Origin: Sinomicrobium oceani
Lineage (GTDB): Bacteria > Bacteroidota > Bacteroidia > Flavobacteriales > Flavobacteriaceae
Direction: 5' to 3'
DNA length: 64,000 bases
Assembly (NCBI RefSeq): GCF_900119185.1
Contig: NZ_FPJE01000018.1
Span: 1 to 64,000, forward strand
Below are positions 1,425 to 11,650 of this stretch, in pieces. The notes beneath the pieces were generated by a model. The model saw only the letters and a list, made by a program, of their open reading frames with translations, was not told the DNA's origin and ran no database searches. A program made the position numbers and the translations under genes. Position 1 is the first letter of the stretch. Each line of letters starts with the position of its first letter.

Positions 1425-4400
1425 TTAAAGTCCTCTACGCATAATTACCCACTGCCAATTCCAAGTGGTTTTTCTGGGGCGCGCATAACTTATAATATTG
1501 TCTGTTGTATATTTATCATAAATATACTTTATATCACTTTCTGGTATTGGGGTCTTGTCCCTATGCGTATGGTATAAACCAATACCATGTACTCCTTCAT
1601 GTGCAAGAGTGGTATCACTTCTTGCCGGCAGCATAATGGCATTCTTAACATTTATGTCCTCTACTGCCCCCGCTACACCAGAATAATTTGGATCAATGCC
1701 TAAGAAAAACAAAGGAAAATAGCCTCCCTCCTTATACGTTGTATTATCAGAAGCATTCATAAAGAGATTTTTTATAGCACGAAACATTGCTTTATTCAAA
1801 CTTCCGGTAGTCATATCCACAAATTTCAATTTGCCATTATTATCGACATGGGCTCCTCCCACTTGAAAGTCAGCCTCTGAAGTCAAATCTAATTTTAAAG
1901 GACTTCCCGAATCATCCTTTTCTACTAAAGTAGGAATAATTAATGCTTGATGTAAAATATTATAAATATTATTTACTTCCGTAGAGCTATGTGTACCGCT
2001 TTTAAAAGATTGCCCATCTGCATCCGTATCGACATCTACCAATACAAATTTAAGTTCTTTCCGTACAGTTGCATCATTCCGCAATACTCTTATCTTCCCT
2101 GCCAATTTTCGTTCCAATAACTGCTCTGCCTCGCTTTTAGCTGTACTATCTTTTGGATAAGCATAGATTTCTATCTCGGTATCAGAAGTGATGTCCTTAT
2201 TACAAGTGATTTTCACAGTAGTATCGGCAGAATTGACTAGACCGCTTGTCTTTGTTTTATCCGACAATTCCGGTTTGTCTATGGTAAATACTTTATCATC
2301 ATAATCAAACGCCAGTTTGTCTATTTCTTCCTCTATTTCCACCAACACCCGTAGTTCGGCTTCATAAGAAGGTTTTACAGCTCCGGAAGGAAGGGTAAGT
2401 CCATCTACATAATCTTTGGGGAAGATCGTGAGATAGGGCACAAAATATTCATTGGATGGTGCAGGAGAGGGAGGTGTTGCTCCCGCTGGCAAAGGCTTTC
2501 TATTAATTGGTATTTGGGTATATTCTGTTTTTAATCTGTTATAAGCCTCGGTTTTAGTTAAATCTGTTGTACCATCTTTATAGCCACTTTCTATAATGGT
2601 TTCATAATCTGTCTCTTGTGTTAGACCATTGTCTTTTGCTCGCAGCCAGTCGAATCCAAACTCCCCGTTATAGCCATTTTGTTGGGTTCTAAACACTACG
2701 ATAGCCAATGCAATTTCCTCTGCAGGAGCAACATCATATTTGTCTGCTACATTGCTGTGTTTATTCCCCTGTTCTCCTTTAACTTCAGCTATACCTTTCG
2801 AGTTAATCGTAGCGGTTTCCTCTGAATGCAGGAACAGTTTCTTTTTCCCCGCGGCATAAAGTTCAGGACTTTCTATTTTTATCTCTTCCTTGCTATTTAT
2901 TAATGTCTTGCCTCCAAACAGGCTCATTACTCCACTAACCATTTGTTTCAAATAAGGCGTAAAAACAAAGAACTTGCTCATCACATTCATCACTATGTTA
3001 TTGGAGACGTTCATTTCCAAATTGTTATACGCATTGAGTTCTATGTCAGTGGCATTTAGTCTTAACCTGTTGGGTGCATTTACTTCAATATTTCCATTCC
3101 CATCCATAAACCATTTGGCACCATAGGCATCCTCAACAAGCATACTCCCGTCCTGGTCATTCATCACCACCTTGTTACCCCTGCGGCTCTGTATGGCTTT
3201 CAGGTGATTCGTAGGGCTGTGATAACCGCTTTTTGCCCCGTTGTGAAACAATGTTCCTGTGACGTATGGTAACTCCGCATTGCCACTGATAAAGTCTACA
3301 ATAACCATTTCCCCGATCTCCGGGATAAAATGAAAACCTTTGTTGTTTCCTGCATTTGCAGCAGCTAAAGGTATCCAGTCCGTAGTCTGGGCATTTTCCT
3401 TTTGCCATGCCATTTGTACCTGTACCCGCCCCAAACCTCTGGGATCATTGTTGTCTTTAACTTCTGCGGGCTGGCTTTCGCATTTGGGATAGCTATCCGG
3501 CACTGCATACGGCGGTATCTGTACAGATGCGGGGACAGCCTTAAAGGTGTTATTATAATCTCCCGTATCGGTGCACTGGTGGGTAGATGTTATAACCTTG
3601 TAATGGCCATGAAGACGGGCATCATCATCCAGTATTTTGACAATAACCCCGGGACGTATGGCTGGATTTTCACTTTTACCGTGTAAAAAGACCATATTGG
3701 CAGCTTTCTTATGAAGGTCTAATTGTGCCAGATCATCCATATCCACTTTTCCCATGCCTTCACTGACGAGGTGGTTACGTTGTACCATTGTCTCTTTGGA
3801 ATACACCTGCCCGGAGGATTTCATAAGCTCGGAAGCCATGCCATTGACCCTGTTCTCATAGTCCCTGCTATGGCTTTGATAAGGCTGTCCTTCGGAAAGA
3901 TCATTCCCGTGATATTTAAATCTCGTGGGTTGCAGGTTCATAGCAAAGTCAAACTCGGAGAGGTTATAGCCATAATGCAATTCTATTTCTTCTCCGGCAT
4001 TTTCCTGTCCTATGATAAGCTGTGTTCCATTATAATAAAACCATTCTCCCTGTCGTGCACAAATACGTTTCACGAAGTCATAATCACTTTCGTTGTATTG
4101 TACAACATAAGGGTAAACGGGAAGTTTTAGCGGTTTATTGGTTATTTGTAAAAGCTGCTGGTCATATAACCGGGTAGTATCATGGACAATGTCCACAAGA
4201 TCTTTTTTCAGGTAAGAAGCCGATTCCGGACCATTATCCATTAATATGGTAGGACTGTAGGCCTTGAATTCGATACGTTTACCATCCTTTTCTTCGGAAC
4301 TACAAGTTTTGATCTGGGTCACCACTCCCTTAAAATAACCGGTATGGGTAGAAAACATACGGTCTATGCCCCGCATGGTTACCAGTATATTCTCACCTAT

Positions 4401-4571
4401 AAGGTTTTGGTAATTACCTTTTAGGCCAATGTCTTGCAGGTAGATCTCATCTTCCCGGCAACTAATGGTAAGTTCGTGATGGTTGTTGGTATCCTGAATT
4501 AAGGAAAAACCATAAAAAGTAACCAACTTTAGTTCCCCGATCTTAACTGTGACCTCCGTTTGTAATGCCAT
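1425..4571 (-). CDS. vgrG: VgrG (TssI) spike protein with C-terminal metalloprotease-like effector domain
   Basis: The protein has 1048 residues. Residues 1-350 match the gp27-like base of VgrG and about 360-450 the gp5 OB fold (LGRVQVQMAW, then GFHFIPEIGEMVIVDF). About 460-570 is the repetitive beta-helix (GNIEVNAPNRLRLNATDIEL). A plain spike would end there. Instead about 450 further residues follow, including a proline-rich linker near residue 690 and a C-terminal domain with HEGVHGIGLYH at 991-1001, the HExxHxxGxxH zinc-binding motif of metzincin-type proteases. The later NIISYARPRKTTW stands where a Met-turn is expected but has isoleucine instead of methionine. The spike should puncture neighbouring cells and deliver the protease domain. 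The lipoprotein downstream is the obvious immunity candidate. Confidence 0.9.
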   Translation of the reverse strand: MALQTEVTVKIGELKLVTFYGFSLIQDTNNHHELTISCREDEIYLQDIGLKGNYQNLIGENILVTMRGIDRMFSTHTGYFKGVVTQIKTCSSEEKDGKRIEFKAYSPTILMDNGPESASYLKKDLVDIVHDTTRLYDQQLLQITNKPLKLPVYPYVVQYNESDYDFVKRICARQGEWFYYNGTQLIIGQENAGEEIELHYGYNLSEFDFAMNLQPTRFKYHGNDLSEGQPYQSHSRDYENRVNGMASELMKSSGQVYSKETMVQRNHLVSEGMGKVDMDDLAQLDLHKKAANMVFLHGKSENPAIRPGVIVKILDDDARLHGHYKVITSTHQCTDTGDYNNTFKAVPASVQIPPYAVPDSYPKCESQPAEVKDNNDPRGLGRVQVQMAWQKENAQTTDWIPLAAANAGNNKGFHFIPEIGEMVIVDFISGNAELPYVTGTLFHNGAKSGYHSPTNHLKAIQSRRGNKVVMNDQDGSMLVEDAYGAKWFMDGNGNIEVNAPNRLRLNATDIELNAYNNLEMNVSNNIVMNVMSKFFVFTPYLKQMVSGVMSLFGGKTLINSKEEIKIESPELYAAGKKKLFLHSEETATINSKGIAEVKGEQGNKHSNVADKYDVAPAEEIALAIVVFRTQQNGYNGEFGFDWLRAKDNGLTQETDYETIIESGYKDGTTDLTKTEAYNRLKTEYTQIPINRKPLPAGATPPSPAPSNEYFVPYLTIFPKDYVDGLTLPSGAVKPSYEAELRVLVEIEEEIDKLAFDYDDKVFTIDKPELSDKTKTSGLVNSADTTVKITCNKDITSDTEIEIYAYPKDSTAKSEAEQLLERKLAGKIRVLRNDATVRKELKFVLVDVDTDADGQSFKSGTHSSTEVNNIYNILHQALIIPTLVEKDDSGSPLKLDLTSEADFQVGGAHVDNNGKLKFVDMTTGSLNKAMFRAIKNLFMNASDNTTYKEGGYFPLFFLGIDPNYSGVAGAVEDINVKNAIMLPARSDTTLAHEGVHGIGLYHTHRDKTPIPESDIKYIYDKYTTDNIISYARPRKTTWNWQWVIMRRGL

Positions 4572-4729
4572 AACAACACGTAATTTATCCTAACTATAAT
4601 ACTTCTCTACACCATCAAATGGCCGTTTAGTTAGCTTAGGGGGGAAAGCCAGGGCAGACCGTAAATATACGAAAAATCCTCTGTTTTTATGTTTCCCAAA
4701 ATGTTCCTCCCTGAGTTTTTCTTACACTA

Positions 4730-5125
4730 CTACATTTGCATGGGCCATTTCTTGGTATAAGGAGTATTCCCTATGTGTATTTCCTTTGCAGAAATCGTGA
4801 TCTCCGTACTCATAGGTTCGTCTCCTACAGCCCTGAATTTTTCTTTATACCGGATGCAATAGCCTTTTTTAAAACTTACAGACTTCATCCGGCTCATACC
4901 GTCCCGCTTGTAAAAAATGAGTTTTCCATCCTTCACCTGGGTAGCGCTGACTACCCAATCGGAAAAGTGATCCTTCATATCCGTTTCTACCACAAGACGT
5001 ATTTCACCTCCCTTTGCATTGGTAGCAGGTTTCCCGTTGTGGTCTATTCCTTTTTCTATCCGTATATCATACTCCAAAATGTTATATGATATATCATCGA
5101 TCTCAAATTTAGCAAGGAAGCTCAT
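4730..5125 (-). CDS. tssD: T6SS tube protein TssD (Hcp-like), first copy
   Basis: This 131-residue protein belongs to the Bacteroidota TssD family. It has an MSFLAKFEIDD start, a GKPATNAKGGEIRLVVET strand, a KSVSFKKGYCIRYKEKF block, and an EITISAKEIHIGN end. TssD hexamers stack into the inner tube of the subtype-iii type VI secretion system and can carry effectors. It lies 158 bp upstream of vgrG in the same direction. It is clearly diverged from the second copy, as expected when different TssD paralogues pair with different cargo. Confidence 0.9.
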   Translation of the reverse strand: MSFLAKFEIDDISYNILEYDIRIEKGIDHNGKPATNAKGGEIRLVVETDMKDHFSDWVVSATQVKDGKLIFYKRDGMSRMKSVSFKKGYCIRYKEKFRAVGDEPMSTEITISAKEIHIGNTPYTKKWPMQM

Positions 5126-5346
5126 TGGCTATTGGTATATATTAGGTTATATAAATACATCATTGCCTGAAACTCATGGCGTTTCAAAGCATAAAATCCT
5201 GTCCCTCGGGATCTCAGGGACATTTTTGTATAGTTGGCTTAATTGTATGCTTGGGGGGGTAGGGTAAATAAAGGGGATGGTGCAAAACCCTCCCCTTTTG
5301 GTAATATCTGATTTGATCGCTTATTACAATAAATAAGGGAACGGGA

Positions 5347-5733
5347 TTATACCCATTCGTTGATATGTTCTCCGTCTCCGCTCTTAATGATACGGCAGGA
5401 GATCGTAAAGGTCTCTGTTAAAGGGTTTCTTCCGGAAGCTTCAAAGTTTTCTTTATACTTCACCAAATATCCTTCGGTAAAGTGTACTTCACGAAGTTTG
5501 GCATCGGTATCTCGCTTGAGATAAGTGATTACACCGTTCTTGCGTTCGAAATTATTGGTCATCCACTCAAAAAAGAAAGAGTCTCCGGTGGATTCAACGG
5601 TCAGGTAGATTCGTCCGCCACGGGTAACCGAAGAAGGTCTTCCTGTGGCATCTACTTCTTGTGCCAGGTCATAATTGGCGTTGAGAATATTCACTTTCTT
5701 GCCGCCAACAGATAATGTTGCTTTAAATGACAT
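5347..5733 (-). CDS. tssD: T6SS tube protein TssD (Hcp-like), second copy
   Basis: This 128-residue protein shares the layout of the TssD above. It starts MSFKATLSVGGKKVNI, has RPSSVTRGGRIYLTVEST in place of the GKPATNAKGG segment, and has REVHFTEGYLVKYKENFEAS and TFTISCRIIKSGDG near the end. It is the first gene of the island in transcription order. Two TssD genes, one vgrG and one PAAR-like gene, without sheath, baseplate or ATPase genes, suggest an orphan effector-delivery island served by a core T6SS elsewhere in the genome. Confidence 0.9.
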   Translation of the reverse strand: MSFKATLSVGGKKVNILNANYDLAQEVDATGRPSSVTRGGRIYLTVESTGDSFFFEWMTNNFERKNGVITYLKRDTDAKLREVHFTEGYLVKYKENFEASGRNPLTETFTISCRIIKSGDGEHINEWV

Positions 5734-6305: not shown

Positions 6306-7229
6306 TTAAAACATTTTTAATCTGGTTTCCAACAAGTTGAAATACTTCTCTTTCATTTCCTCTGAAAGGAAAGAGATCTCTATCAATTCCTTCCATTTTA
6401 GTGCTGCTTCTTGCACTTGTCCGAGGATCGTTGCTATTATTTTTTCGTTCAACTGCAATCGCTCCTTCGCATAGTAGTCTGTAAAGTCAGAAGCTTTCAG
6501 ATTACTTTTCTTTCCTTTCAGGGTCAGTGCAATTTCCTCTTCGGGATTTTTTATGGCAATCGAAGAGTTCAATAGATCGTAGGTTGGCGTTAAGGTTGTT
6601 TTACCGTTTTTGGTGATCAGGGAAAAGTTCTTTAAATGCATGTCCTCATTCCCGGTCACATAACAGAAAATGACCCGTTTGAAAAAATCCGCCTTTTCAA
6701 TTGCTGGAAACGAGCAATATTCTTCGATCACCGGAACCAGTTTTTCCATGGTAAAACGGTATTTCGTATCCCTTGTATTTCCGGTCAATTGCGCAAAATC
6801 TTCCGTGGCATATTTTTTCCCCTTGCCGTAGCGGTCAAAACGCTTTACAAAATACGACAGACTGCCATCCTTGGCATATAGCATCCCATGAAAGGGTACA
6901 TCCAGGCCAAATATCTTGGCCATGCGCATGGTCAAATCTTCATTTTCCGGCAACTGGGGAAATAGATCGTTTTGTGGCTTTATGATATAGGTTCCAAATT
7001 GGTCCACAATTTTAAACTCCTGATGGACCACGGAAACCGTTGCACTCAATTTAGGCTGTACCCCCTGTATGGATAACTTCTTTGCCCTGTTTACCGCCTC
7101 TTGTCTCAATTCAGTGGCAGTATAGGGCAAGTCATTTAAATGGTCTAACCTTGGCGAAATCATTTTAAGTCCTCTTTCACTATATTTTGCTGTACCGCAT
7201 AATTCGTATGTGATGGGACATCTATTCAT
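6306..7229 (-). CDS. hipT: HipT-like serine/threonine kinase toxin (HipA C-terminal domain)
   Basis: This 307-residue protein corresponds to the kinase core of HipA without its N-terminal subdomain. It carries a glycine-rich loop region KLSIQGVQPKLS at about residues 51-62, the strand TYIIKPQ with the ATP-binding lysine, the catalytic loop GNEDMHLKNFSLI, and the PTYDLLNS metal-binding segment. HipA-family kinases phosphorylate aminoacyl-tRNA synthetases and stop growth: HipA acts on GltX, and the HipT of the E. coli O127 HipBST system acts on TrpS. The start codon overlaps the end of hipS by 8 bases, so the two are translationally coupled. The missing N-terminal piece is supplied by hipS as a separate protein. 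All key kinase residues appear present. Confidence 0.88.
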   Translation of the reverse strand: MNRCPITYELCGTAKYSERGLKMISPRLDHLNDLPYTATELRQEAVNRAKKLSIQGVQPKLSATVSVVHQEFKIVDQFGTYIIKPQNDLFPQLPENEDLTMRMAKIFGLDVPFHGMLYAKDGSLSYFVKRFDRYGKGKKYATEDFAQLTGNTRDTKYRFTMEKLVPVIEEYCSFPAIEKADFFKRVIFCYVTGNEDMHLKNFSLITKNGKTTLTPTYDLLNSSIAIKNPEEEIALTLKGKKSNLKASDFTDYYAKERLQLNEKIIATILGQVQEAALKWKELIEISFLSEEMKEKYFNLLETRLKMF

Positions 7230-7536
7230 CTTCCATTGGTTTAACTGTTACCGCACCTACCAGATCAGTTCCTGTTGCCACCAATTGGGAGAAATAATCC
7301 TTCTGGTCAATTTTGGCAATCCTCAGCAATCCCTCCAACATAATACCTTCTGGCAATACACCTTCAAAAAAGGGAGGGAATGAAGTATAACTGTATTTTT
7401 TCTGACCAACGGGCATGGTCAATGAGATGGCTTCTCCCTCGTAGTGATCATCATATTCAAAATGATATTCGTTAGGGGAAACCTCTGTCAGCACGCCTGC
7501 CCTTTTTCCGTGAACATATACAACTGCTTTCCTCAT
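7222..7536 (-). CDS. hipS: HipS-like protein (stand-alone HipA N-terminal subdomain)
   Basis: This 104-residue protein matches the N-subdomain-1 of HipA: KAVVYVHGKRAGVLTE at the start, ISLTMPVGQKKYSY, FPPFFEGVLPEGIMLEGLL, and a DYFSQLVATGTDLVGAVTV end. In classical HipA this module is fused to the kinase. In tripartite HipBST systems it is separate and acts as the antitoxin. The gene begins 1 base after the hipB stop and overlaps hipT, which makes a tight three-gene operon. An antitoxin role is inferred from the family, not visible in the sequence. Confidence 0.85.
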   Translation of the reverse strand: MRKAVVYVHGKRAGVLTEVSPNEYHFEYDDHYEGEAISLTMPVGQKKYSYTSFPPFFEGVLPEGIMLEGLLRIAKIDQKDYFSQLVATGTDLVGAVTVKPMEDE

Positions 7537-7537
7537 A

Positions 7538-7747
7538 CTATTTGGTCAATGGACTTTTAAATTCCACTTTAATGTTCAAAACTCGGAGCACCGATAGAAG
7601 ATTATTCCAGCGAACAGTTTCCTTATTTTTTTCAATATCAAAAACGGTGGTTTTCCCGACTCCGGCCAGATTGGCCAATTCGAGTTGTGTAAGCCCTGCT
7701 TTTTTTCGATGATCTTTCACCATAGGCCCTAATTCGAAATCATCCAT
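7538..7747 (-). CDS. hipB: HipB-like transcription regulator (XRE HTH)
   Basis: This 69-residue protein is a single Cro/C1-type helix-turn-helix: LGPMVKDHRKKAGLTQLELANLAGVGKTTVFDIEKNKETVRWNNLLSVLRVLNIKVEF, about residues 6-64. HipB dimers bind palindromic operators and repress their own operon. The first of three matching 20-bp palindromes begins 3 bases upstream of the ATG. In this tripartite layout HipB may act mainly as the DNA-binding part. Confidence 0.88.
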   Translation of the reverse strand: MDDFELGPMVKDHRKKAGLTQLELANLAGVGKTTVFDIEKNKETVRWNNLLSVLRVLNIKVEFKSPLTK

Positions 7748-7749
7748 AA

Positions 7750-7769
7750 TTTACTGTTTAGGCAGTAAA
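7750..7769. promoter_or_regulatory. Candidate HipB operator O1
   Basis: TTTACTGTTTAGGCAGTAAA has perfect 7-base arms (TTTACTG/CAGTAAA) around a 6-base spacer. It starts 3 bases upstream of the hipB ATG, so a bound repressor would cover the start region. Confidence 0.75.
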
Positions 7770-7820
7770 AATACGCAATTTAATAATGCGAATGTATATA
7801 AAATTTAAAAACAATACTTT

Positions 7821-7840
7821 TTTACTGTTATAGCGGTAAA
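7821..7840. promoter_or_regulatory. Candidate HipB operator O2
   Basis: TTTACTGTTATAGCGGTAAA shares arms TTTACYG/CRGTAAA with O1 and lies exactly 71 bases further upstream. It has one mismatched arm pair. Confidence 0.7.
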
Positions 7841-7891
7841 ATGAAAGATGAAAGAGCGGAAGAACGAGTGATAAATAATTTCAACCTTGTA

Positions 7892-7911
7892 ATTACCGGT
7901 ATAGCGGTAGA
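7892..7911. promoter_or_regulatory. Candidate HipB operator O3
   Basis: ATTACCGGTATAGCGGTAGA is the most diverged of the three sites and again lies exactly 71 bases from O2. The core TTACCG...CGGTA is symmetrical. Confidence 0.6.
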
Positions 7912-8027
7912 ATGTCATTTTCAGTACAGTATGGATGATTTCCTTTTGACCACCCTTATTGGTCTATCAACAGCATACCCCTCCCCCGCATGATTGTACC
8001 TTAAATCCGTAGGTTCATGTTAAAAAC

Positions 8028-8062
8028 AACCGCAAAGATTTGATAACAAATACTTTGCGGTT
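8028..8062 (+). terminator. Hairpin with T-run at IS1380 left end
   Basis: AACCGCAAAG (8028-8037) pairs with CTTTGCGGTT (8053-8062), a perfect 10-bp stem, and the right arm runs on into TTTTGG. It lies 5' of the transposase and could stop transcripts entering the IS from outside. Confidence 0.6.
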
Positions 8063-8104
8063 TTGGTGTTTTCACCTAAATTGGTGATGCTCAAATACAC
8101 CAAT

Positions 8105-9400
8105 ATGAAAGTAATAAAATCTAAAAATATTCCCGCATTTGGAGGGATAAATTTTGTGATTGAAGAATTTGATAGGCAAGGTTTAGGCCAATTGCTCAAC
8201 GAATAGCTCCCAAACCTTGGTTCCCAAAGTTGTTATGATTGGCGTGATATTTTATATAGTTATTGGTCTGTTTTCTTTTGTGGTGGGGATTGCGCCGAAG
8301 ATTTGTCCGGAAATTTTAAACCAAGCCTGTCCCAATCCCCGTTTTTAAAAGTTCCTAGTCCGGACAGGGTTCTGGGCAGGTTAAAGGAACTGGCACTGCC
8401 AGGAACCCTTTTTTCTACACCAAGAGGACAATTTCAACATCACTTTGCGATCAATGAAAAACTGTCGGATTTAAACCTTTCGGTATTAGATAGGTTATTT
8501 AGCTTGTCCAAAAACAAAGTTGATCTGGACTATGACAACACGGTTTGTTTTACCAAAAAACAGGATGCAGAATGTACCTACCACAAAAAACTTGGTTACA
8601 TACCCGGAGTTGGGCTTGTTGGCTCAAAAATAGTCTATGTGGAAAATCGAAATGGGAGGAGCAACGCCGCCATATTGCAAGAAGAAACCCTTGAGCGTAT
8701 GTTTGGGCACCTTGGAAGCAAGGGCATCAAAGTAAACAGGTTTAGGGCAGACAGCGCTTCTTACACTTTCAAGATCATCAAGGTCATTGAAAAACATACG
8801 GACAAATTTTACATCAAGGCCAGGATGTCCGCAGGCTTGGCCAGTACTATAGCTTCGATAAAACAATGGAAACAAATTGATAAAGAAAAGGAGGACACTT
8901 TCAGGGGAGAAACATTTTATGTCCCTTTTGAACGGGCGGCAAGGGATACCAAATCAAAGGGAGAACTAAAGGCCTACAGGTTTATCGTCACCAAGGAAAA
9001 AAGAAGGGACGGGCAGATCAATGCTTTTACGGGGGAAGCCTGTAATTATTCGGTGATCATTACCAACGATGAAGAAAGCCAAGTGGACGATACCGTGTAT
9101 TACTATAATCAACGGGGAAGCATAGAAAAAGAGTTCGATGTACTGAAAAATGATTTTGGATGGGGGAAATTACCGTTCTCTGTACTGGAACAAAATCTTG
9201 TTTACTTACAAATAACAGCCATCTGTCGTAACCTGTACCATTATATTATCCAGGCATTTTCCAAAAAGGTTAAGGGACTCTTGCCTTCCTTTAGAATTAA
9301 AAAGTTTATCTTCAGGTTTATTGCCGTACCAGCTAAATGGGTGTACCGTTCAAGGCAATGGCACTTAAAAATATATGGGGATATAGCTTTGAAAATATAG
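8105..9400 (+). pseudogene. IS1380-family transposase with in-frame amber stop
   Basis: Translation from the ATG at 8105 gives MKVIKSKNIPAFGGINF and continues in one frame to 9400, 431 codons, the normal IS1380 length. Codon 34 (8204-8206) is TAG. The frame resumes directly with LPNLGSQSCYDWRDILYSYW. DDE-transposase landmarks downstream include LDYDNTVCFTKKQDAECTYHKKLGY, FRADSASY and GEACNYSVIITND. The nonsense codon probably inactivates the enzyme unless it is read through or the downstream TTG at 8303 is used. The element would otherwise look young, because both ends are nearly perfect. Confidence 0.85.
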
Positions 9401-9616
9401 GAGATCTGTAGCAGTCGCTCCTTGAAAACATTGGTCTTTGCCTTAAAAGGATGGTTTCTTCAAGGGAAAAAATATGCCCTGTGGCCAAGCAGTTTTGTTT
9501 CCATAAAGGAACTTCCCATTCTTTTTTACCTACCTTAAGCCATCCCAAAGGGCTTCTTTTCATTTTTATCCGGAGTTGCGGATTTAAGGTACAATCGTGC
9601 GGTAGCGTAATTATTT

Positions 9617-10540
9617 TTACTGCAACACAGGGACTTCCATATAAAAGGCAGTCATGCCAATATAGTTGGTGGTAGCATTCAGTTTTTTGGTCAGTATCTT
9701 TTCTATGGTGGTCACCGGGGCATCCGGGACGTTAAAGGAACAAATACATCTTACGCGTTTGCCATTGTAGTTAAAGATAAGGCCTTCGGTGGGCGTGTCG
9801 GGGTATTGTTGGGCAAGGGCGATTTGTATAGCTTGGAGGGTTTGATTGAGTTCTTTTGTGTGAATATTATCTTCCTCATCCCGGTCATAAGTAGCATCTG
9901 CCTGACCTATGGACTTACTGCCTGGCTTTAATATACGGGCAGAAGTCATTTTTACAGCTTTTTTTTCCGGTGTACGTACCTTGATTTGATGGTATCTTTT
10001 GAGTGCACAATCATACTCAGATATAGCATATACCAGGATGATATCAAAATTTTTATCCATAAACAGGTATTTCCAAAAAGGCACCTCTCTAAATACAATA
10101 TTGGCAACATTATTAGTAAGCTCTTCACCATCACCGGTATTAAATGGAAGATTTTTTAGTTTTCCATCGCTCCTATCCGGCCCGTAGGAATACAACTGAT
10201 ATTCTACATAACTTCTTTTTAAGGTATCATCCTCCACATCTACAGTATCGATCTTTATATTATAGCCGTATTTTTCTATAAATTGTGTTTTCCCTTCACG
10301 TTCATTGTGAATATCTTCCAGGATTTCCGCCATTTCCTTTTTATTGCGAGGCCATACTTCTCCATATTCGTCATGGCTGTCCGTGATATCCAGTATAATA
10401 TCATCCTCGACAAAAGAAGACTTATAATCCTCTAAATAGTTTTGTAAATCCGTGTACCGGTAATACTGGTATCCTAAAAAGAATAGTATTAGCACGGTTA
10501 AAATTACCAGGCCTGTTTTAATACCCTTTATATTCTTCAT
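9617..10540 (-). CDS. Membrane-anchored protein of unknown function, paralogue A
   Basis: The family is not recognised. The 307-residue protein has one N-terminal membrane segment (about residues 8-25, TGLVILTVLILFFLGYQYY) and then a soluble domain likely outside the cytoplasm. The last 70 residues (from QYPDTPTEGLIFNYNGKRV to YMEVPVLQ) are almost the same as in paralogue B just upstream, with about 9 base differences over roughly 195 bases, while the first two thirds are only moderately similar (shared EKYGYNI, YSYGPD, LKNLPFN and YLFMDKNFD). The start overlaps the remnant of a partner gene, and the IS1380 element abuts the 3' end. Confidence 0.75.
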   Translation of the reverse strand: MKNIKGIKTGLVILTVLILFFLGYQYYRYTDLQNYLEDYKSSFVEDDIILDITDSHDEYGEVWPRNKKEMAEILEDIHNEREGKTQFIEKYGYNIKIDTVDVEDDTLKRSYVEYQLYSYGPDRSDGKLKNLPFNTGDGEELTNNVANIVFREVPFWKYLFMDKNFDIILVYAISEYDCALKRYHQIKVRTPEKKAVKMTSARILKPGSKSIGQADATYDRDEEDNIHTKELNQTLQAIQIALAQQYPDTPTEGLIFNYNGKRVRCICSFNVPDAPVTTIEKILTKKLNATTNYIGMTAFYMEVPVLQ

Positions 10541-10728
10541 TAAACAACTCTTTATACACTTGTTTAAATGCTGTCTTATCCTCGATTTTTATTATGATTG
10601 TTGGTTTGTCTTGCTTTCCATAGAATTCAAACCAATTATATCTTGAATTATCCCTTTTTTCATCATATTTAATATGGTGTATGGTATTACTGTAGCCCTG
10701 ATGGAAGCGAGCCCCGGATGGTATACAT
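10518..10728 (-). pseudogene. 3' remnant of a second copy of the 269-residue partner gene
   Basis: Reading leftward from 10728, an open frame without a start codon gives YSNTIHHIKYDEKR, RYNWFEFYG, PTIIIKIEDKTAFKQVYKEL and FNEEYKGY before a stop at 10518. This matches the C-terminus of the complete gene at 11662-12471 (NTLSHIES, KYNVFKFTG, MIYIQMDREAFKQVYKEI, GDEYRD). It shows that a two-gene unit was duplicated and that the first gene of the second unit lost all but its last 60 codons. Its stop lies 22 bases inside the next gene. Confidence 0.8.
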
Positions 10729-10732
10729 TATT

Positions 10733-11650
10733 TTACTGCAACACAGGGACTTCCATATAAAAGGCCGTCATGCCTATATAGTTGGCGGTAGCATTTAGTT
10801 TTTCGGTGAGTATCTTTTCTATAGTGGTCACCGGGGCATCCGGGACGTTAAAGGAACAAATACATCTTACGCGTTTGCCATTGTAGTTAAAAATAAGGCC
10901 TTCGGTGGGCGTGTCGGGATATTGTTCCGTTAGATTTTCCCGGATGGTTTTGAGGGTTTGGTTAAACGTTTTGGTATATGAGTTTTCCTTATCTTCTTCA
11001 TATTTTTTAATATAGGTAATATCCAAAGGACCATTTCTTTTCTGAACAGGTTTTATGATATAGGCATCTTGCATTCTTCCTGATTTCGATTGGGGAGCTC
11101 CACTATTTACCTGGCTGTATTTTTTATTCTCGCAATTATAATACGGAGAAGCATACACAAGAACGACATCGAAGTTTTTATCCATAAAAAGATACTCCCA
11201 AAAAGTGATTTCTTTTATGGGAATTCCCCAGGGAGTATACTCCATTGGAAGATTGTTGAAAGGAAGGTTTTTTAGCTGGTCGTCTTTTTTATCTGGTCCG
11301 TAAGAATACAGTTTGTATGCTATATACTTTACTTTCAAGGTATCCGTGTCGATCATTACGGTATCTATATGGATGTTGTAACCGTATTTCTCTATATATA
11401 GCCGGTCTGTCTGGCCATTCAAAAATTTTATCCTGTCCAAAACCGAGTCCAGATCCTTTTTATTCTTGGGCCACAACTCCCCATAATGATCGAATGAAGA
11501 GGTAAGGGCTGTACTTACAGATAATTCATTACCGGAATTTTTAAACTGCTTTATGAATTCCCGGAAAGAAGTAAACTGATAATATTGATATCCTATATAG
11601 GATAACAGGGTTATGACCAATAAGGATAATATAACTTTAATGATCTTCAT
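10733..11650 (-). CDS. Membrane-anchored protein of unknown function, paralogue B
   Basis: This 305-residue protein has the same plan as paralogue A: an N-terminal membrane segment (KVILSLLVITLLSYIGYQYY, about residues 4-23) and a soluble remainder with the shared C-terminal block ending YMEVPVLQ. It begins 11 bases after the stop of the 269-residue gene and is presumably cotranscribed with it. The near-identical C-termini and diverged middle parts suggest gene conversion at the 3' end. Function unknown. Confidence 0.75.
   Translation of the reverse strand: MKIIKVILSLLVITLLSYIGYQYYQFTSFREFIKQFKNSGNELSVSTALTSSFDHYGELWPKNKKDLDSVLDRIKFLNGQTDRLYIEKYGYNIHIDTVMIDTDTLKVKYIAYKLYSYGPDKKDDQLKNLPFNNLPMEYTPWGIPIKEITFWEYLFMDKNFDVVLVYASPYYNCENKKYSQVNSGAPQSKSGRMQDAYIIKPVQKRNGPLDITYIKKYEEDKENSYTKTFNQTLKTIRENLTEQYPDTPTEGLIFNYNGKRVRCICSFNVPDAPVTTIEKILTEKLNATANYIGMTAFYMEVPVLQ

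What the first reader, a model, noticed from the sequence alone, without database searches (positions are those of the whole stretch)
7750..7911. Three hipBST operator palindromes at exact 71-bp steps
20-bp palindromes sharing TTTACYG arms start at 7750, 7821 and 7892. The exact equal spacing, close to seven helical turns, would put bound dimers nearly on one face and permit looping or cooperative repression. Divergence increases away from the gene.
Basis: seen in the sequence. Interest (0 to 1): 0.55.

Follow-up and report, generated by a model that had tools for sequence, protein, structure and literature searches.

The report
Helix-phased operators of a toxin switch
Upstream of a three-gene bacterial toxin-antitoxin unit lie three binding sites for its own repressor, set at steps of 71 base pairs that relatives mostly keep or change by about whole turns of the DNA helix, which suggests that the bound repressors must line up on one side of the DNA.

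Summary
Three near-palindromes (7750, 7821, 7892; exact 71-bp steps) lie upstream of hipB-hipS-hipT in a Sinomicrobium-like genome; 0 of 20,000 shuffles gave two such sites. They are conserved: of 131 distinct hipT loci, 116 hold a pair of sites at 69-74, 60-62 or 40-42 bp; 9 of the other 15 lack hipB, are contig-cut or have a remoter hipT. Linkers drift to chance identity while mean length differences stay under 1 bp. Steps cluster at 31, 40-42, 61-62 and 70-73 bp; best zero-phase period about 10.2 bp.

Three evenly spaced HipB operators with 53-bp gaps, a 71-bp period, are already published for Legionella HipBST (PMC10653801). So this is a new member of a known kind. Its spread over Bacteroidota and neighbours and the whole-turn ladder I did not find in print.

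Most likely: autoregulatory HipB operators, O1 over the predicted transcription start, phased for same-face cooperative repression. Cooperativity or looping is inferred, not shown. At textbook 10.5 bp/turn, 71 bp is 6.76 turns, so the same-face claim rests on the ladder.

The parts
7750..7769 (.). O1, proximal HipB operator; predicted to cover about +2 to +21 of the transcript
   Evidence: 14/14 match to TTTACYG-N6-CRGTAAA; a site of 11 or more at this place in 99 of the 108 loci tested
7821..7840 (.). O2, middle HipB operator, 71 bp from O1
   Evidence: 14/14; at 61-62 or 70-73 bp from O1 in 95 of the 99 loci with O1
7892..7911 (.). O3, distal HipB operator, 71 bp from O2
   Evidence: 12/14; at 61 or 69-73 bp from O2 in 89 of the 95 loci with O2
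7770..7820 (.). O1-O2 linker, 51 bp, holds the predicted core promoter
   Evidence: length kept; sequence above chance until HipT identity falls to 50-60%
7841..7891 (.). O2-O3 linker, 51 bp
   Evidence: near chance identity between loci already at HipT identity 80-90%, mean length difference 0.6 bp
7775..7782 (-). predicted -7 promoter box TAAATTGC (flavobacterial SM5 type TAnnTTGY)
   Evidence: TAnnTT at this fixed place in 20 of 57 flavobacterial loci, mean over positions 1.7; SM5 motif from PMC9723704 passages
7538..7747 (-). hipB, 69 aa Xre/Cro-type HTH repressor
   Evidence: HTH_3 2.7e-08; couple_hipB 7.7e-19 at 67.4 bits, under its 71.65 cut-off
7222..7536 (-). hipS, 104 aa, HipA N-terminal-domain antitoxin
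   Evidence: Couple_hipA 5.4e-23
6306..7229 (-). hipT, 307 aa HipA_C kinase toxin of the HipT(Lp) type
   Evidence: HipA_C 2.8e-46; solved HipT(Lp) 8ezr 8e-111

Best explanation
The three palindromes are the autoregulatory operators of a HipBST toxin-antitoxin operon of the Legionella type. A HipB dimer, alone or carrying HipT and HipS, binds each site. O1 lies over the predicted transcription start and blocks initiation directly; O2 and O3 lie upstream. Selection holds the distance between sites to whole helical turns, so that the complexes face the same way and reinforce each other, by neighbour contact over bent or looped DNA or by adding their bends. Shown here: sites, conservation, length constraint, near-whole-turn jumps. 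Shown elsewhere for the Legionella homologue: HipB binds each site. Inferred: binding here, the start site, and the cooperative step.
For: Sites beyond chance. O1-O2 steps in 95 of the 99 loci with O1: 61 (7), 62 (5), 70 (6), 71 (50), 72 (25), 73 (2), with 50-89 bp open to the search. Both intervals belong to one class in 88 of 89 loci; L126 is the exception (62, 72). O2-O3 linker identity 0.38 against 0.36 shuffled at HipT 80-90% (238 pairs), mean length difference 0.6 bp. The 61-bp class needs 4 changes on a quick HipT tree, at least 2 forced by starred branches. Second set, fetched after two classes were seen: of 31 steps under 100 bp, 24 fall in those classes and 7 are new (31 or 41 bp); 30 of 31 lie within 1.5 bp of a multiple of 10.2, a value fitted afterwards (my count). 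Cluster-level: best zero-phase period 10.18, score 0.79, against 0.27 at 10.5; without the 66-76 class 10.22, score 0.72; uniform random sets as periodic, 0 of 5000 in both. The hipB-less loci L059, L060 and L072 hold no array. In seven loci a TTGACA/TATAAT-like promoter has the operator as its spacer, a register unlike the window's, and all but one of their steps stay on the ladder. E. coli HipBST heterohexamers partly associate in solution (SAXS, PMC10627512 passages).
Against: The Legionella paper raises intermediate occupancy, in contrast to cooperativity. At 10.5 bp/turn, 71 and 142 bp are not whole turns. With each distinct step counted once the periodicity is weak: 365 of 5000 random sets as good at threshold 11, 155 at threshold 12. 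With threshold 12 and without the 66-76 class only 11 steps remain (18 of 5000). Off-ladder steps occur: 24, 27, 43, 45 and 46 bp, 5 of 34 non-71 cluster-level values, and 38 bp in L156 with a weaker site. The random test ignores kinship beyond 75% clustering. No binding or expression data exist here for this organism.
Confidence: 0.72

Rival explanations
1. Phased bends without contact: each HipB dimer bends its site, and whole-turn spacing makes the bends add up in one plane, curling the promoter; the proteins never touch.
For: Steps of about 3, 4, 6 and 7 turns all occur, which suits a phase rule better than one fixed contact distance. E. coli HipA-HipB2-HipA bends its operator by 70 degrees (PMC3376134 passages).
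Against: Nothing here tells it from contact or looping.
Confidence: 0.25
2. Three independent operators whose equal spacing is left over from tandem duplication of a 71-bp unit.
For: L068 has a clearly duplicated linker (72% identical), so duplication can happen.
Against: Within-locus linkers are no more alike (0.386) than those of other loci (0.390), shuffles 0.371, n = 89. Length is kept where sequence is at chance level.
Confidence: 0.06
3. The spacing is set by RNA polymerase: operators stand at the two edges of the promoter.
For: A -7-like box sits at a fixed place before O1 in 20 of 57 flavobacterial loci.
Against: O2-O3, outside the predicted promoter, is kept about as tightly (sd 0.75 against 0.62 bp in the 71 class). 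In L155, L156, L157, L160, L163, L167 and L168 (7 of the 10 loci matched by the promoter pattern) the operator is the promoter spacer itself, yet steps stay on the ladder except 38 bp in L156.
Confidence: 0.05
4. The palindromes act as RNA hairpins or attenuators in the leader.
For: O1 is near the start codon; one terminator-like hit falls on O3.
Against: O3 and O2 lie upstream of the predicted start. 38 of 89 O1 copies have a C-A mismatch at one arm pair (positions 5 and 14). The terminator-like count (1) is at the shuffled level (0.8).
Confidence: 0.02

Closest known systems
HipBST of Legionella pneumophila, operators O1-O3 (PMC10653801)
   Same: Same gene order and HipT type (8e-111). Three evenly spaced HipB operators; 18-nt sites with 53-bp gaps = 71 bp. 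O1 is the most conserved and lies just upstream of hipB.
   Different: Operator letters are not in the text I could read. That paper describes the sites in 28 Legionella species, says the motif is absent upstream of E. coli hipBST, and raises intermediate occupancy; helical phase does not come up in the passages and section I read.
HipBA of Escherichia coli K-12
   Same: HTH antitoxin autoregulates through several palindromic operators, cooperatively (PMC3376134 passages).
   Different: Operator TATCCN8GGATA; O1-O2 28 bp apart (counted from the oligonucleotide printed in PMC3376134); two genes.
HipBST of E. coli O127:H6 (PMC10627512)
   Same: Three genes, HipS neutralises HipT, HipB represses the operon; heterohexamers partly associate in solution (passages).
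   Different: Its HipT is far less like the window's: 7ab4, 3.8e-29 (that 7ab4 is this HipT is recalled, the table says HipA_C domain-containing protein). This operator motif is reported absent there (PMC10653801).
NrdR box pairs (PMC12051234)
   Same: Works like it: paired sites whose spacing differs by one whole turn between species, binding best at whole turns.
   Different: Unrelated protein; two boxes, 15-16 or 25-26 bp spacers.

Membership tests
HipBST, Legionella (HipT-Lp) type | Operon order hipB-hipS-hipT, HipT lacking the HipA N-subdomain, HipS supplying it | tested here: met
HipBST, Legionella (HipT-Lp) type | HipT closer to HipT(Lp) than to HipT(Ec) or HipA | tested here: met
   8ezr 8e-111; 7ab4 (E. 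coli HipT, name recalled) 3.8e-29; 2wiu HipA 3.1e-06
HipBST, Legionella (HipT-Lp) type | Three evenly spaced operators, period 71 bp | tested here: met
   53-bp gaps of 18-nt sites in PMC10653801
HipBST, Legionella (HipT-Lp) type | Operator sequence the same as in Legionella | not tested
   letters not in the readable text; the one Legionella record met was not fetched
HipBST, Legionella (HipT-Lp) type | HipB binds each operator; HipS, not HipB, neutralises HipT | not testable with these tools
   needs protein
HipBA of E. coli K-12 | One full-length HipA and TATCCN8GGATA operators | tested here: not met
   split hipS/hipT; operator TTTACYG-N6-CRGTAAA
Whole-turn phased operator arrays | Steps differ between relatives by whole helical turns | tested here: met
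   weak if each distinct value counts once (365 of 5000 at threshold 11, 155 of 5000 at 12)

The most novel reading that the evidence does not exclude
HipBST operators across Bacteroidota and neighbouring phyla form a phase-locked ladder: sites may sit 3, 4, 6 or 7 turns apart, and arrays may hold two to five of them, but at whole turns of about 10.2 bp, a value nearer to DNA wrapped on protein than to free DNA (the wrapped value is recalled). The repressed state would then be a compact same-face nucleoprotein of HipB-HipS-HipT that stores toxin on its own promoter.
Probability: 0.4. Interest if true: 0.68.

Novelty: new member of a known kind. Interest (0 to 1): 0.5.

Why it matters
Whether HipBST operators act one by one or as a unit is open: the one paper with HipBST operators that I found left it so. 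A spacing kept to about 1 bp over 51 bp of drifting linker, and changed by about whole helical turns, is a strong sign that geometry matters, and it yields a simple test (5-bp against 10-bp insertions). It also indicates that the 71-bp layout published for Legionella reaches Bacteroidota, Ignavibacteriota and candidate phyla.

Tried and rejected
Chance: rejected. Recent tandem duplication: rejected except L068. Other HipB targets in the same genome: a pattern scan with up to 1 mismatch gave 117 places a strand against 71 for the control; among the first places listed (the output is cut) no other array showed, and the single sites cannot be told from background. Extra sites inside 61/71 intervals: 10 seen in 211 linkers against 3.1 expected, 8 of 10 on the ladder against 37% in shuffles; two pairs are near relatives, so I treat this as suggestive only. 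Phages: no hit. IMG/VR: one query found nothing, the other two remote loci without the motif. Structure prediction: not run, since single chains would not bear on operator spacing. Of 131 distinct loci, 15 show no pair at 69-74, 60-62 or 40-42 bp: L041, L150 and L166 are cut by contig ends; L059, L060 and L072 lack hipB; L002, L170 and L171 are remoter hipT types (39-46% identity); L107-L109, L118, L127 and L169 are divergent, GC-rich or broken and not resolved. The second set and later counts used a motif that also allows G at the fourth base; the first count did not.

Full report
What is there. The window belongs to a Sinomicrobium-like genome: the nearest named HipT is that of S. pectinilyticum, 94% identical. 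On the minus strand hipB, hipS and hipT follow each other and match HTH_3, Couple_hipA and HipA_C. HipT's best solved relative is Legionella HipT(Lp), 8e-111; 7ab4, which I recall as E. coli HipT, is at 3.8e-29. Upstream of hipB the three near-palindromes stand at 7750, 7821 and 7892, scoring 14, 14 and 12 of 14 against TTTACYG-N6-CRGTAAA. None of 20,000 shuffles held two such sites.

Conservation. I gathered hipT loci by protein similarity alone, without regard to operators: the best 80 of 469 confirmed matches in one genome scan, plus genome searches and two IMG/VR loci. The locus is patchy: 4 of 299 genomes of the family and 17 of 395 of the phylum had a hipT at E 1e-60. After removing near-copies 109 of 128 loci remained. 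Of these, 108 could be tested for O1 and 99 had it. Of the 99, 95 had O2 at 61-62 bp (12 loci) or 70-73 bp (83 loci), although anything from 50 to 89 bp was allowed. In 89 of the 95, O3 follows: 61 (7), 69 (1), 70 (26), 71 (42), 72 (11), 73 (2). Both intervals are of one class in 88 of 89; the exception, L126, is GC-rich (0.61) and reads 62 then 72 with weak sites. The 71 class includes Bacteroidota, Ignavibacteriota (L062, L073), KSB1 (L065), Delongbacteria (L069) and Neomarinimicrobiota (L082) by record title, the last five being MAGs. One locus is filed as Bifidobacterium breve (L066); it groups with Flavobacterium, so I take the MAG label as wrong.

Length, not sequence. Between loci of one class the O2-O3 linker is near chance identity already when HipT is 80-90% identical (0.38 against 0.36 shuffled), while its mean length difference is 0.6 bp. 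The O1-O2 linker, which holds the predicted promoter, stays above chance longer (0.53 against 0.39 at 80-90%) and reaches it at 50-60% (0.39 against 0.38); mean length differences stay under 1 bp throughout. Sites stay at 0.71 or more in every band (1,500 random same-class pairs). Inside a locus the two linkers are no more alike (0.386) than those of other loci (0.390), except in L068. So the spacing is kept by selection and is not a trace of recent duplication.

The ladder. The 61-bp class needs four changes on a quick HipT tree, two of them forced by starred branches. After the two classes were seen I fetched more loci: 29, of which 22 remained after removing copies. Adjacent steps were 31 (1), 41 (6), 61 (2), 69 (1), 70 (5), 71 (14), 72 (2), and three above 100 bp (112, 137, 276). 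So 24 of 31 steps under 100 bp fell in the known classes, and 7 made shorter rungs that I had not foreseen; the period of 10.2 bp was fitted afterwards. L155 has five sites at 41, 41, 31 and 41 bp. Over all 131 loci, grouped into 54 clusters at 75% HipT identity, the best zero-phase period of 91 steps is 10.18 bp; leaving out the 66-76 class it is 10.22 (34 steps); none of 5000 uniform random sets was as periodic in either case. Results against: with each distinct step counted once, 365 of 5000 random sets were as good at threshold 11 and 155 at threshold 12; five of the 34 non-71 values (24, 27, 43, 45, 46) are off the ladder; the random sets ignore kinship beyond clustering. At 10.5 bp/turn the zero-phase score is only 0.27. 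Pairs at 69-74 or 60-62 bp occur in 113 of 131 loci against 1 of 131 in a 390-nt coding control; 3 more loci have 40-42 bp alone.

Promoter. In 57 flavobacterial loci a TAnnTT box starts 13 bp before O1 in 20, against a mean of 1.7 over positions; the window has TAAATTGC, which fits the SM5 box TAnnTTGY at -12 to -5 described for Flavobacterium psychrophilum (PMC9723704 passages). That puts the start at about 7770, so O1 would cover +2 to +21 (inference). A TTGACA/TATAAT-like pattern matched 10 loci; in 7 of them (L155, L156, L157, L160, L163, L167, L168) the operator is its spacer. The promoter register thus seems to differ between lineages while the ladder stays, with one exception (38 bp in L156).

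Mechanism. Best supported: HipB, with or without HipS and HipT, binds all sites and represses; whole-turn spacing lets the complexes act together. Contact over a bend, looping and summed bends are not told apart. Shown here: sites, conservation, length constraint, near-whole-turn jumps. Shown for Legionella: HipB shifts 50-bp fragments with a complete site, and HipT joins the complex, HipS with it by the authors' reading (PMC10653801). Inferred: everything about binding and cooperativity in this organism.

Comparison and novelty. PMC10653801 (passages, one Results section in full) reports three operators with 53-bp gaps in nearly all of 28 Legionella species; 18 + 53 = 71. Its authors call these the first HipBST operators, note that HipBST(Lp) homologues are widespread in the FCB superphylum, and raise intermediate occupancy. 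I found no report of the array in Bacteroidota or of its helical phase in searches (listings; the library lacks most subscription journals) or in the passages seen of PMC10627512, PMC8262856, PMC6581861 and PMC9325769. NrdR (PMC12051234, abstract and section 2.5) is a worked precedent for spacing that shifts by a whole turn. Hence: new member of a known kind, with an unreported regularity worth a bench test.

Control loci. L059 and L060, two close relatives, carry hipS and hipT (L060's hipT is interrupted) but no hipB, and have no operators. L072 is a truncated copy, likewise without hipB or array. The second hip locus of the same genome (L002, HipT 39% identical) lacks this array and has different palindromes about 40 bp apart.

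Noticed in passing
window 7922-7942: An inverted near-copy of the O1/hipB-start boundary (CAGTA...ATGGATGATTTC, 90% over 21 nt) faces away from hipB just beyond O3; a similar stretch stands in L004, but the reading frame after it does not look like HipB by eye.
   Followed up: partly
window about 7984-9604: IS1380-type element with inverted ends of about 23 bp, read by eye, right upstream of the array; its transposase frame lacks the first part of the family model, so it looks broken, and no target duplication is evident by eye.
   Followed up: partly
window 1425-5733: hipBST lies beside type VI secretion genes (a VgrG-like protein and an Hcp/TssD protein).
   Followed up: no
window 9617-11650: Two tandem paralogues (307 and 305 aa) with nearly the same C-terminal end; the first has no Pfam or NCBIfam match, the second was not scanned.
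   Followed up: no
L002 (G000:C33 around 207340): A second, remote hip locus in the same genome with its own palindromes (ATATGC-AAAA-GCATAT type) about 40 bp apart.
   Followed up: partly
O1 in 89 related loci: O1 mostly pairs one TTTACTG-type with one TTTACCG-type arm (68 of 89), more than the column make-up predicts (about 44 by my arithmetic); O2 does not (40 of 89). Kinship was not corrected for.
   Followed up: partly
L126, L100: In GC-rich genomes the operator arm drifts to TTGCCG while steps near 71-72 bp remain.
   Followed up: partly
L068: Its two linkers are 72% identical, a sign of a recent tandem duplication of the operator unit.
   Followed up: no
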